Part shown: positions 1 through 20,365 of the stretch, piece by piece | How positions within the stretch are numbered: position 1 is the stretch's first letter | Layout: the number at the start of each line of letters is the position of its first letter | NCBI RefSeq assembly: GCF_018802605.1 | Contig: NZ_CP069161.1 | Coordinates: 682,001 to 746,000, forward strand | Direction of reading: 5' to 3' | Length of the DNA: 64,000 bases | Origin: Paludibacterium paludis | GTDB taxonomy: Bacteria > Pseudomonadota > Gammaproteobacteria > Burkholderiales > Chromobacteriaceae | The notes under the pieces: generated by a model | What the model was told of the DNA's origin: nothing | Database searches by the model: none | Seen by the model: only the letters and a program-made list of their open reading frames with translations | Made by a program: the position numbers and the translations under genes

Positions 1-3000
1 TCGGTAGCGGATGGCGCGGACGCGCCGCTGACCCATGCCCAGCGGCGCATGTGGTTCCTCGAACAGATGAATCCGGGATCCTCGGCGTACCACATCGGGG
101 TCGTCAAGCATGCGCTCGGGACAGTCGATCCCGACCTGCTGCGCCGCAGCCTGGCGGTGCTGTTCGAACGCCACGAGGCTCTGCGCATCCGTTTGCTGAC
201 GGACGGCGCCGAAGTGCGTCAGCGCGTCTCGGACGAACCCGTGCAGTGCGATATCCAGCCTGTGCCGGCGCTGGACGACTGGGCATGGCACAGCACCGTC
301 GACGCGATCGCCCGGGCGCAGTTGCACACGCCGTTCCAGCTGGACGGCGGCCCGCTGTACCGCTTGCGGATCGCCGTTTCGGACAACGGCCGCTGCGCGC
401 TGGTGTGGATCGTTCACCACCTGGTGATGGATGAGGCATCCTTCTCCGTGCTGGATGACGAATTGCCTCGCATCTACGAGGCGCTGGCCGCCGGCCTCGA
501 ACCGGCGCTGCCGCCGCCCGCGGCCCGGTTCCTCGGTTACGCGCAGTGGGAGCGCGCCACCGGGCGCGAACCGGAGTGGCGGCGCCAGCTGGATGACTGG
601 AAAACCGTGTTCGCCACGCCTCCGGTCATCGCGACCCTGCCGTCCGATATGGTTCGGGATGCGGTCACGGCACGCGATGCGCGGGCCGGCATCGAATCTT
701 TCGAACTGGACGCGAGTGTGACGGCACGCGTGCGCGATCTGGCCCGGCGGATGGGCACCACGCCGTTCACGGTGGTGCTGGCCGGTTACATGGCGCTGCT
801 GCAACGCTATACCTCGGAACGCGACATCACCGTCGGCGTTCCCGTGTCGGTCAGACCTTTCCCCGAACTGGAAGGCACGGTCGGACTGTTTCTCAATACG
901 CTGGCGCTGCGCGCCGGGGTGGATCCGGATTCGTCGTTCCAGTCGCTCCTCGAGACCCTGGGAGGAACGGTATCCCGGGCCTGGGCGAACCAGGCGGTGC
1001 CGTTCGAGCGCGTCGTGGACGCGGTGGATGCCGGACGCGACCACGATGGCCAGCCGCTGTTCCGGACGATGCTCGCGTACAGCCGCAAGTCCGTGGCGCC
1101 GGGCGGGCGGGCGCTCGAACTGGTCAGTTCGCCGGTGGCCGCGTCGTGCGCCAAGTTCGACGTGACGGTGTTTGTCGAAGAATACGACGAGGTGTTCCGG
1201 GGGACCTTAGAATACCGAGCGTCGCTGTTCCGCCCTGAATCAATACGCCGTCTGGCCGGACATTTTTGCCGGTTGATCGACGGTGCCGTGGCCGATCCGG
1301 CCTGCCCGGTCGGCGCATTGCCGATTCTCTCCGACGAGGAGCGGGGCTTCCTGCTGGACGGTTTCAATGCGACCGACGCCCCCTTGCCCGGGCAGTGCGC
1401 GCACCGCTTGTTCGAAGCGCAGGTCCGCCGCCGACCCGAGGCCATCGCCTGCGTGTGCGAAGGGCGCGAGCTCGGTTACGGCGAGCTTAACGCGCGCGCC
1501 AATCGTCTTGCCCGGTACCTGCGCGCGGCGGGCATCGGCACCGGCCAGCGGGTGGGGATCTTTCTGGAGCGCGGCGAGTCGCTGGTCGTGGCGATTCTCG
1601 CCGTCATGAAGACCGGCGCCGCCTACCTGCCGATGGACAGTGGCTTGCCCGGGCAGCGCCTGGCGTATCTGCTCGAAGACAGCGCGGCGTCCTTGCTGAT
1701 CACCGGGGAGGCCCTGGCTTCACGCGTGCCCGGGCAAGGTCCGGCGCGGTTATTGATCGATGCGCAGGCCGAACGCTTCGCGTCCTTCGCCGCCGGGGAT
1801 CCCGAATGGCCGGTGGCCTTGGGCGATCCGGCCTACGTGATTTACACCTCGGGCTCGACCGGGTTGCCCAAAGGCGTGGTGGTGCCGCACCTCGGACTCG
1901 CCAATTATCTCGCGCACGCGGTGGCGCACTACGACCATCCGGACGGCGCCGGCAACCCGATGCACTCCTCGATCGCGTTCGACGCCACCATCACCAGCCT
2001 TTTCGTGCCGCTGTTGACGGGCAAGACGCTCTTCATCGTGCCCGAAGACGATGAAATCGAACGTCTGTGCGACCTGTGGCGCGAGAAACCGGCGTTGACG
2101 CTCGCCAAGATCACGCCGGCGCACCTTGAAGTGCTGTCCAAGATCCTGCCCGCCAGCGCGGCCGGCCACACCGCCGCGCTGGTGGTGGGCGGCGAGGCCC
2201 TGCTGGCCACCACGCTGGCTTTCTGGCGCGAACACGCGCCCAGCGTGCGGGTGATCAATGAATACGGGCCGACCGAAACGACCGTGGGCTGCTGCGTGTA
2301 CGAACTTGCCGCCGGCGACGCCGCGGACGCGGGCCCCGTGCCGATCGGCAAACCGATCCGCAACACCCGTCTGTACGTGCTGGACGAGACGGGTCGAGTG
2401 TTGCCGCCCGGCGCGGTCGGCGAGCTGTATATCGGCGGCGCGGGCGTGGCGCTGGGCTACCTGAACCGCCCGGAATTGACCGCGGAGCGTTTCGTGCCCG
2501 ATCCGTTCAGCGCCGACGAAGGCGCCCGGCTTTACAAGACCGGGGACCTGGTCAGGTTCGATGCGTCGGGCCAGCTCGTCTATCTTGGGCGCAAGGATCA
2601 TCAGGTCAAGCTGCGCGGCTACCGCATCGAGCTTGGCGAAGTCGAAGCGGCCCTGGCGGCGCATCCCGCGGTGCGCGAGGCGGCGGCGCAGATCGACGAG
2701 CGCGGCGGACGCCGACAGCTGGTGGCGTATGCCGTGCTCGATAGCGAAGACACGGAAGGCATTCTCGACGACCTCGCACAAAACCTGCCGGCCTATATGG
2801 TGCCGTCCATTCTGGTGCCGGTGCCGGCCATGCCCCTGACGACCAACGGCAAGGTCGACCGCGAAGCGCTGGCGCGCCTGCGGCCCGAACCGTTGCGCGA
2901 AGCGCCGGCGGTGGCGCGTTCCGATATGGAAAAACAACTCGCGGCGATCTGGCGCGAGGTGCTCAATCGCGACGACATTGGCATCCACGACAATTTCTTC

Positions 3001-18812: not shown

Positions 18813-20365
18813 ATACACTGCTGACGCCGTTCCCCGTGGCGACGGACCGGGCCGACGGAGCCCCGCCCGACACGGTATTGCCGCTGGGCTACGCGCAATT
18901 GTGCTTCTGGTTCGTGTATGCGGCGCTGGGCGAGACCGCCAACAATCTGTCGCGCACCCTCCTTGATGGAGAGCTCGACATCCAGAGGCTGGAGCGCGCC
19001 TTCAACCTGTTGATCGAGCGGCATGACTCGCTTCGGGCGAGCATCCCGGACTGGAATCCGGTGCAGCGGATCCGGGAGCACACACCGTTCGATCTGCCTG
19101 TTCAGGACGTGTCGACGCTGGATGAAGCGCCGCGCGCCGCGGTGATCGGCAAGGTTTCGCATGCGCTGATCGCCTCCCCGTTCCGGCTCGACGAACCTCC
19201 CCTGTTGCGCGCGCGCCTGTTCCGTCTCGCCCCCCGGCAGCATCTGTTGCTGCTGTGTTTCCCGCACATCGTCGCCGACGGCGGCGCGGTGCACCTGTTC
19301 GAGCGGCAATTGATCGAGTGCTACGAGGCGCTGTTCCGTGGCGAGCGGCGCTTGCCCGGTCGCGCCGATACCCTGCAGATCGGCCGGTTCGCCGTTGCCG
19401 AGCGTGATCGCAACCGACTTTGCGGCGCGGCGGCGGAGACGTTCTGGCGCAAGCGGCTGGCCGGCCATCCGTATGCGCGTTTTCCCGAAAGGATGCTGGC
19501 ACGCGGCGAGCGGATCCTCCACAGCCGCTACATGGCGTTTCCGGAAGGCGCGCTGGCCGCCCTGACCGGGCTCGCCCACCGTCACAAAGCCACATTGCAG
19601 ATGGGATTGATTGCGGTCGTTGGGAGCGCGATTCACCGGGTGACCGGCCAGGCCCGCTTCACGGTCAACTCCGTCCTGGAAAACCGCGAGGAACCGGGAA
19701 CCGATGCCCTGATGGCGCCGTTGCTGGGGGTGATGCCGGTGCCGATGGCGATGGAGGGCGGCATGACATTCGACGCGCTGCTCGGCCGGGTGCGCGAGTT
19801 CGTGCTCGAGGCCTATGAGCATCGCGACTGCCCGTGGAGCATCCCGGTCGGCTTGCTCGCCGAACAGCGCTGGCGGTCGAGTCCGCGTTTGCGCGTCGCG
19901 GGCGTGCGCGCGGCCGGCTGGCTGATGGCCAGGGTGTTTCGCAAGGCCCGGCTCTATCCGCGATTTCTCGCCGATTATCTGTTCATGGAGCCGTTTCCTC
20001 CCAAAGGATGGCGGCGTGGCGACCGTACCGCCTTTCACGGTGTTCCGGATCCGGTCATCAACGTGAACATGCTGCAAAGCGCCTTCAAGCGGGACACCGA
20101 GTCGGAACAGAATGCGTCCGGGCTGAAGGCTCGTCCGTTGAATAGCCCGACCCAATACACGCTGGACGAAGAATGTCCGGGCCAGTGGGAGGATGACACC
20201 ATCAATATTTATATCGTCGACACGGGCAACGGCACGCCTTCCTTGCGCGTAACGTGCGCGAACCTCAATGCCGAAGGCGTTGCGGCGCTGCTTGCCGCGC
20301 TTTCTGATGTGCTCGGGTATCTCTCGCGCAATCCGCATCTTCCCATCAATCTCATGGATCGCTAG
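18809..20365 (+). CDS. Stand-alone condensation-domain protein, possible chain release or coupling enzyme
   Basis: This 518-aa protein consists only of a condensation (acyl-CoA-dependent acyltransferase-like) fold. It opens with a degenerate C1 motif (PLGYAQLCFW) and has PHIVADG at about 152-158 in place of HHxxxDG, keeping the catalytic second His (His153). It starts with GTG inside the stop codon of the PKS gene (GTGA overlap), so the two are translationally coupled. Single C domains at the end of assembly lines can transfer the finished chain to an amine, alcohol or water, or join it to a free partner. Because no thioesterase is visible in the window, release is my favoured role, by inference only. 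It could instead be a tailoring acyltransferase. Confidence 0.85.
   Translation: MNTLLTPFPVATDRADGAPPDTVLPLGYAQLCFWFVYAALGETANNLSRTLLDGELDIQRLERAFNLLIERHDSLRASIPDWNPVQRIREHTPFDLPVQDVSTLDEAPRAAVIGKVSHALIASPFRLDEPPLLRARLFRLAPRQHLLLLCFPHIVADGGAVHLFERQLIECYEALFRGERRLPGRADTLQIGRFAVAERDRNRLCGAAAETFWRKRLAGHPYARFPERMLARGERILHSRYMAFPEGALAALTGLAHRHKATLQMGLIAVVGSAIHRVTGQARFTVNSVLENREEPGTDALMAPLLGVMPVPMAMEGGMTFDALLGRVREFVLEAYEHRDCPWSIPVGLLAEQRWRSSPRLRVAGVRAAGWLMARVFRKARLYPRFLADYLFMEPFPPKGWRRGDRTAFHGVPDPVINVNMLQSAFKRDTESEQNASGLKARPLNSPTQYTLDEECPGQWEDDTINIYIVDTGNGTPSLRVTCANLNAEGVAALLAALSDVLGYLSRNPHLPINLMDR

What the first reader, a model, noticed from the sequence alone, without database searches (positions are those of the whole stretch)
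1..20365. NRPS-PKS assembly line with readable partial product: D-Asn, Asn, Thr, hydrophobic residue, reduced malonyl unit
Seen: domain order C-A-T-E-C-A-T / C-A-T-C-A-T / KS-AT-KR-ACP / C. Pocket residues read by eye are DATKVGEVGK twice, DFWNIGMVHK and DAMFIGGTFK. Known: the third is the standard Thr code, the first two are near the Asn code, and HAFH marks malonyl AT. Inference: ...-D-Asn-L-Asn-Thr-X-(beta-hydroxy ketide). I do not recall a described compound with this order, but I could not search.
Basis: partly seen in the sequence, partly recalled or inferred. Interest (0 to 1): 0.75.

Follow-up and report, generated by a model that had tools for sequence, protein, structure and literature searches.

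The report
Zeamine-family antibiotic assembly line
This stretch is the peptide-building half of a gene cluster that matches, almost gene for gene and in nearly all the residues that choose its building blocks, the clusters for the known zeamine and fabclavine antibiotics, so it likely makes a relative of those and not a new kind of compound.

Summary
Domain order, all four pocket codes and the malonyl-type AT motif are confirmed. The window cuts the first NRPS gene, which starts 4.9 kb upstream and adds two modules (six in all); a PUFA-synthase-like polyamine operon precedes it. Gene and domain order match the zeamine (Serratia) and fabclavine (Xenorhabdus) clusters. The Asn, Asn and Thr codes equal the published zeamine codes; the Val code differs in one residue. 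The host is a Paludibacterium by gyrase B, and a zeamine-like cluster of Paludibacterium paludis is already named in print (JACS Au 2026). Likely mechanism: a hexapeptide plus reduced malonyl unit(s) is joined by the free-standing C domain to a long polyamine, then exported. Particular to this locus: no homologue of the zeamine-trimming hydrolase Zmn22 was detected in the genome, so the full-length product may be kept; the exporter/PPTase/two-component block lies downstream here and upstream in three relatives (a circular permutation); a small uncharacterised gene is shared with those three betaproteobacterial relatives. Product untested.

The parts
1..7677 (+). 3' part of NRPS1 (Zmn16/FclI counterpart; gene starts upstream at genome 677081): C-A-T-E-C-A-T, modules 3 and 4
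   Evidence: 45% identical to S. plymuthica NRPS1 over aa 1-4188
22..1353 (+). Condensation domain of module 3 (HHLVMDE motif)
1402..2874 (+). Adenylation domain A3, code DATKVGEVGK (Asn)
   Evidence: extent; code; published Zmn A3 code identical
3004..3021 (+). Carrier motif LGGDSI of thiolation domain T3
3166..4446 (+). Epimerisation domain after module 3 (HHLVVDG), predicted to give D-Asn
   Evidence: Zmn16 has a putative E domain in module 3 (paper); no E-specific profile among the 25 rows listed
4540..5811 (+). Condensation domain of module 4 (HHAILDG)
5860..7326 (+). Adenylation domain A4, code DATKVGEVGK (Asn)
   Evidence: extent; code
7393..7572 (+). Thiolation domain T4 (LGGHSL)
7674..14240 (+). 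NRPS2 (Zmn17/FclJ counterpart) C-A-T-C-A-T; start taken as the GTG that overlaps the NRPS1 stop (GTGA); the longest open frame starts at 7395
   Evidence: junction read; 53% to Serratia, 64% to J. fluminis
7779..9065 (+). Condensation domain of module 5 (HHIISDA)
9117..10628 (+). Adenylation domain A5, code DFWNIGMVHK (Thr)
   Evidence: extent; code
10707..10880 (+). Thiolation domain T5 (LGGDSL)
10983..12332 (+). Condensation domain of module 6 (CHPIFDG; first His replaced by Cys, as reported for Zmn17)
   Evidence: paper
12393..13877 (+). Adenylation domain A6, code DAMFIGGTFK (Val-like; Zmn DALFIGGTFK)
   Evidence: extent; code
14025..14027 (+). Serine codon of thiolation domain T6 (FDLAGHSL)
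14259..18812 (+). PKS module KS-AT-KR-ACP (Zmn18/FclK counterpart); GTACS, VEAHGT, NIGHT, GHSIG, HAFH, YCAAN, LNGHS present
18809..20365 (+). Free-standing condensation protein (Zmn19/ZmsK/FclL counterpart), PHIVADG motif; predicted to join the peptide-ketide to the polyamine
20371..21315 (+). ABC transporter ATPase (Zmn20/FclM counterpart)
21308..22420 (+). ABC-2 permease (Zmn21/FclN counterpart)
22492..23223 (+). OmpR-type response regulator, part of the relocated block
23232..24644 (+). Sensor histidine kinase, part of the relocated block
24604..25473 (-). EntD-like phosphopantetheinyl transferase (Zmn5 counterpart)
25335..26828 (-). Outer membrane efflux protein (no counterpart found in the Serratia region read)
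26738..27649 (-). HlyD-family membrane fusion protein (Zmn6 counterpart)
27646..28365 (-). ABC ATPase (Zmn7 counterpart)
28377..29504 (-). MacB/DevC-like ABC permease (Zmn8 counterpart)

Best explanation
This is the peptide-ketide half of a zeamine/fabclavine-type antibiotic cluster of about 52 kb (genome 659297-711504), and it likely makes a hexapeptide-ketide that is joined to a long polyamine and exported. Shown: gene content, gene order, domain order, the active-site motifs read and the pocket codes. Inferred from the characterised relatives: six modules load X1-X2-D-Asn-Asn-Thr-Val(-like); one PKS module adds one or more malonyl units and reduces the keto group; in parallel the PUFA-synthase-like enzymes upstream (PfaA, PfaC, enoyl reductase-aminotransferase, KR, thioester reductase) build a polyamine with a terminal amine; the free-standing C domain transfers the acyl chain from the PKS carrier to that amine, which releases the product; the ABC pumps export it. 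Inferred and less sure: with no Zmn22 found, the full-length molecule is kept (as for fabclavines) and not trimmed to zeamine. A PKS-type DH in PfaA may allow a deoxy-polyamine, as shown for Xenorhabdus bovienii.
For: Whole-locus comparison by best tblastn segment, 13 own proteins from PfaA to the ABC permease: 12 of 13 have a counterpart in the same order and orientation in Serratia plymuthica (45-70% identity) and in Xenorhabdus budapestensis (43-68%), the miss being the small P0050; 13 of 13 do in Janthinobacterium fluminis (48-80%), Chitinivorax sp. B (44-86%) and C. tropicus (40-84%). Codes of A3, A4 and A5 are identical to Serratia; A6, A2 and A1 differ in one residue each (paper Table 2). 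Lone-C relatives include ZmsK (Dickeya), a Serratia plymuthica protein and Xenorhabdus proteins; 49 hits, one of them itself. C-motif oddities are shared: CHxxxDG in the last NRPS2 C domain and PHxxxDG in the lone C. The upstream operon was scanned. Zmn22: the Serratia protein used as query is the minus-strand hydrolase right after the ABC permease (365 aa; alpha/beta hydrolase with S33 and S9 matches). No hit in the own genome, J. fluminis or X. budapestensis; only Serratia itself (1 of 4 genomes). It hit D. oryzae (56%) and none of six others (1 of 7), so the search can see a diverged homologue.
Against: No metabolite was measured. The first two residues are uncertain: own A2 (DSWTIASVSK) differs at one position from the Phe-predicted Serratia code, and position 2 varies (Phe, His, Ala) in fabclavines although the key residues are conserved (PMC7214866). 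Nine S9-peptidase matches lie elsewhere in the genome and other hydrolase families, S33 among them, were not searched, so trimming by another enzyme is not excluded; the JACS Au authors hypothesise zeamine-like products for Paludibacterium paludis. The first NRPS2 C domain has HHIISDA, not the HHxxxDG reported for Zmn17. The zmn9 counterpart that Serratia, X. budapestensis and both Chitinivorax have before PfaA was not found in the own or J. fluminis region.
Confidence: 0.92

Rival explanations
1. The same assembly line, but the product is trimmed to zeamine: a peptidase encoded elsewhere in the genome removes the first five residues after export.
For: Nine Peptidase_S9 matches in the own genome; Zmn22 itself matches S33 best, a family not searched here; the JACS Au paper hypothesises zeamine-like products for P. 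paludis from architecture and A-domain predictions; PfaA carries the DH that zeamine producers have and Xenorhabdus other than X. bovienii lacks.
Against: No Zmn22 homologue at E <= 0.001 in the genome, and none in the fetched regions of J. fluminis and two Chitinivorax; none of the nine S9 matches lies within the locus.
Confidence: 0.3
2. An NRPS-PKS product unrelated to zeamine: an undescribed peptide-ketide released by the lone C domain onto some other acceptor.
For: The window alone shows no polyamine genes; they begin upstream.
Against: Colinear polyamine operon immediately upstream and identical or near-identical codes.
Confidence: 0.03
3. The cluster is a decayed or silent remnant.
For: Nothing in the sequence; expression was not tested.
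Against: The large frames are open and the active-site motifs read are present, T1 and T6 serines included.
Confidence: 0.05

Closest known systems
Zeamine cluster zmn5-zmn22 of Serratia plymuthica (RVH1 in PMC3547906; genome NBRC 102599 compared here)
   Same: Order of PfaA, PfaC, ER-AMT, KR, TR, CN hydrolase, NRPS 4+2 modules with one E, PKS KS-AT-KR-ACP, lone C, ABC pair; codes A3-A5 identical; PPTase-HlyD-ABC set present; DH at the end of PfaA
   Different: No Zmn22 hydrolase found; no zmn9 counterpart in the region; PPTase/exporter block downstream, not upstream; extra small gene P0050, two-component system and outer membrane efflux protein; one residue differs in each of codes A1, A2 and A6
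Fabclavine cluster fcl of Xenorhabdus (X. budapestensis compared here)
   Same: Same biosynthetic order; no Zmn22
   Different: Its PfaA counterpart lacks the C-terminal DH present here; no PPTase/HlyD block in the region read; A6 code DAWFIGGTFK; has a zmn9 counterpart
Zeamine-like clusters of Janthinobacterium fluminis, Chitinivorax sp. B and Chitinivorax tropicus
   Same: All 20 proteins of this locus tested (PfaA to ABC permease, two-component pair, PPTase, OEP, HlyD, ABC set) have a counterpart; no Zmn22 hit in the regions read
   Different: The two-component/PPTase/exporter block lies before PfaA in all three; here it lies after the ABC permease. Both Chitinivorax have a distant zmn9 counterpart, not found here
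Zeamine-like cluster of Paludibacterium paludis BCRC 80514 (JACS Au 2026)
   Same: Same genus by gyrase B; named as a clade I zeamine-like cluster; possibly the same species as this host
   Different: Its sequence and the supplementary tables were not available here, so identity was not tested

Membership tests
zeamine/fabclavine family | PfaA-like KS-AT-ACP-KR with one LGIDS carrier domain | tested here: met
   (genome 659297-666040)
zeamine/fabclavine family | PfaC-like KS-CLF protein | tested here: met
   58% over aa 1-1315 to the Serratia protein; two ketoacyl-synthase stretches in the first 770 aa; its later part was not scanned for domains
zeamine/fabclavine family | PfaD-type enoyl reductase fused to a class III aminotransferase | tested here: met
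zeamine/fabclavine family | Stand-alone KR, thioester reductase and CN hydrolase between the two halves | tested here: met
zeamine/fabclavine family | Six NRPS modules on two proteins (4+2) with Asn, Asn, Thr at positions 3 to 5 and an E domain after module 3 | tested here: met
   E assigned by place, motif and homology to Zmn16, not by an E-specific profile
zeamine/fabclavine family | One KS-AT(malonyl)-KR-ACP module followed by a free-standing C protein with PHxxxDG | tested here: met
zeamine/fabclavine family | A polyamine conjugate as product | not testable with these tools
   needs mass spectrometry
zeamine (as distinct from fabclavine) | Acylpeptide hydrolase Zmn22 | tested here: not met
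   no hit at E <= 0.001 in the own genome; diverged positive control found in D. oryzae at 56%
zeamine (as distinct from fabclavine) | PPTase with HlyD/ABC exporter set (zmn5-8) beside the cluster | tested here: met
   lies downstream here
fabclavine (as distinct from zeamine) | No PKS-type DH at the end of FclC (Xenorhabdus other than X. bovienii) | tested here: not met
   DH present with HVVHGHAVLP and DVFVQ (paper)

The most novel reading that the evidence does not exclude
A betaproteobacterial branch of the zeamine family has dropped, or never had, the trimming hydrolase and secretes the intact hexapeptide-ketide-polyamine, through a pump set under its own two-component control; in this host the whole 52-kb locus has been circularly permuted, as if it had moved through a circular form.
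Probability: 0.3. Interest if true: 0.45.

Novelty: new member of a known kind. Interest (0 to 1): 0.25.

Why it matters
It places a broad-spectrum antibiotic pathway, studied mainly in Enterobacterales, in a single-contig Paludibacterium genome with all its main parts, and it separates two features found together in the zeamine producer compared here: the exporter/PPTase set is present and the trimming hydrolase was not found. That makes a clear, testable prediction about which molecule is released. As a claim of a new compound class it does not matter: the class is known.

Tried and rejected
The MFS gene just upstream (genome 657191-658447) as a cluster member: no hit in any of five relative regions, while four of six genomes of the genus, own included, have a relative. 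The acyl-CoA ligase downstream (window 30070-31782): only weak cross-hits to A domains in the regions, while six of six genomes of the genus, own included, have a relative. A circular-form attachment site: between the two edges read (genome 656500-659400 and 711450-713000) there is no direct exact repeat of 12 bases or more; one inverted match of 13 bases was seen and not tested against chance; the longest direct shared word (11) is below the control median of 12, and 169 of 175 random pairs reach or pass it. No tRNA at the edges (the one tRNA in the window is at 63501-63576).

Led nowhere: aminodeoxychorismate synthase (window 40772-42244) as a marker of the host gave mixed phyla, so gyrase B was used. 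The plasmid collection gave 391 records with distant C domains, none covering 80% of the query. Rfam: no match in the window. NCBIfam on the NRPS proteins gave general adenylation and NRPS names in the 25 rows listed for each; no E-specific family was among them.

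Full report
The observation. The window is genome 682001-746000 of a single 4.07-Mb contig. Pfam confirms the NRPS, PKS and lone C frames. Nine of ten positions were taken by alignment, anchored on one Serratia domain; the same method returned those nine positions of all six published zeamine codes correctly (PMC3547906 Table 2 read). The AT carries GHSIG and HAFH.

What the window hides. The first NRPS gene starts at genome 677081, so two modules lie upstream: A1 DPRHAALLAK and A2 DSWTIASVSK (the final K rests on the NGK or NNK motif). 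Further upstream are a PfaA-like protein with one LGIDS carrier domain, KR and DH; a PfaC-like protein; an enoyl reductase-aminotransferase fusion; a KR; a thioester reductase; a 223-aa protein without Pfam or NCBIfam match (P0050); and a CN hydrolase. This is the zeamine/fabclavine polyamine operon.

Comparison with known clusters. tblastn of each protein against stretches of five genomes gives the same gene order from PfaA to the ABC permease in all five: J. fluminis, Chitinivorax sp. B, C. tropicus, S. plymuthica and X. budapestensis, with P0050 missing from the last two. A whole-genome search found P0050 in one of seven genomes, J. fluminis; the other six are Enterobacterales, Serratia and Xenorhabdus among them. 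A zmn9 counterpart was found before PfaA in Serratia, X. budapestensis and, distantly (23-26%), both Chitinivorax, but not in the own or J. fluminis region. In the lone-C tree (31 rows, midpoint root, one long outlying row) the own protein falls with Chitinivorax, Janthinobacterium, Massilia and unnamed rows (19 rows, support 96/95), apart from the Serratia, Pantoea, Dickeya and Xenorhabdus group (11 rows, 98/93). Its place within its group is not resolved.

Host and spread. Gyrase B is 90% identical to those of Paludibacterium yongneupense and P. purpuratum, with an unnamed 95% hit, so the genus is Paludibacterium; the species was not shown. The lone C was found in 1 of 61 genomes of the family at E <= 1e-40 and in 3 of 399 sampled from the order at E <= 1e-60, this one included (at most three candidates scored per genome). 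The sparse spread fits horizontal gain, which is inference. The JACS Au 2026 paper PMC13291983 (abstract, introduction, diversity section and passages seen) names Paludibacterium paludis BCRC 80514 as a holder of a clade I cluster thought to be zeamine-like. A search for Paludibacterium with 'biosynthetic gene cluster' listed two papers, that one and a list of validated names. This window may be that species.

Mechanism. From PMC3547906 (abstract, results and discussion read): the NRPS-PKS is proposed to make the peptide-ketide, the PUFA-like enzymes the polyamine, and the lone C domain to join them. PMC7214866 (abstract, introduction, one results section, one passage and discussion) gives the same picture for fabclavines, with variable positions 2 and 6 and one to three ketide units. 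These steps are transferred here by homology and are not shown in this host.

Trimming. [quoted passage not shown] The S. plymuthica hydrolase used as query lies right after the ABC permease on the minus strand, as Zmn22 does, and is an alpha/beta hydrolase with S33 and S9 matches. It gave no hit in the own genome, J. fluminis or X. budapestensis (one of four genomes, Serratia itself), 56% in D. oryzae and none in six others (one of seven). It is absent from the regions read of both Chitinivorax (whole genomes not searched). Nine S9-peptidase matches exist in the own genome, none in the locus, and S33 was not searched, so another trimming enzyme remains possible. The published guess of zeamine-like products and this result point in different directions.

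Dehydratase. PMC9113149 (abstract, introduction and first results, one results section) shows that a PKS-type DH at the end of FclC gives a deoxy-polyamine in X. bovienii. The own PfaA has such a DH with HVVHGHAVLP and DVFVQ; J. fluminis and Serratia keep the His and Asp but not the Gly at the same spacing; X. budapestensis lacks the domain. Whether this changes the product is open: zeamine producers have the DH too.

Rearrangement. In J. fluminis and both Chitinivorax the block response regulator, kinase, PPTase, OEP, HlyD, ABC ATPase, permease lies before PfaA; in this host the same seven genes in the same order and orientations lie after the ABC permease. In Serratia the PPTase-HlyD-ABC part also lies before PfaA. 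The arrangement here is therefore likely derived: a circular permutation. No direct repeat or tRNA was found at the edges, so how it arose is unknown.

Verdict. A well-read piece of a known family, extended here to its full locus. New member of a known kind, and possibly already listed in print.

Noticed in passing
window 22492-29504 against L031/L019 (J. fluminis), L038 (Chitinivorax sp. B), L041-L042 (C. tropicus): A seven-gene block (response regulator, kinase, PPTase, OEP, HlyD, ABC ATPase, permease) lies downstream of the biosynthetic genes here but upstream in three of three betaproteobacterial relatives, internal order kept: a circular permutation of the locus.
   Followed up: partly
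genome 675580-676251 (L002:7080-7751), upstream of the window: A 223-aa protein with no Pfam or NCBIfam match, found between thioester reductase and CN hydrolase in four of four betaproteobacterial clusters (own included), and in neither the Serratia nor the X. budapestensis cluster.
   Followed up: partly
G000:C1:3752967-3783019 (L004, L005): A second NRPS region with five of the genome's twelve condensation-type matches.
   Followed up: no
window 32672-40700: A 2149-aa DUF4347/Ig-like repeat protein followed by an outer membrane efflux protein; looks like a secreted adhesin with its own export channel.
   Followed up: no
window 40772-42244 (-): An aminodeoxychorismate/anthranilate synthase whose best named relatives (50-54%) are in Caballeronia, Rhizobium, Burkholderia, Granulicella and Streptomyces; no Chromobacteriaceae name among the 120 rows listed, many of them unnamed. 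Possibly acquired.
   Followed up: partly
window 42939-46166 (+): A 1075-aa ankyrin-repeat protein.
   Followed up: no
window 49259-50968 (-) and 53072-54343 (-): Two photolyase-family proteins close together, near a cyclopropane-synthase-like methyltransferase (55905-57593 -) and an amine oxidoreductase (57916-59196 -).
   Followed up: no
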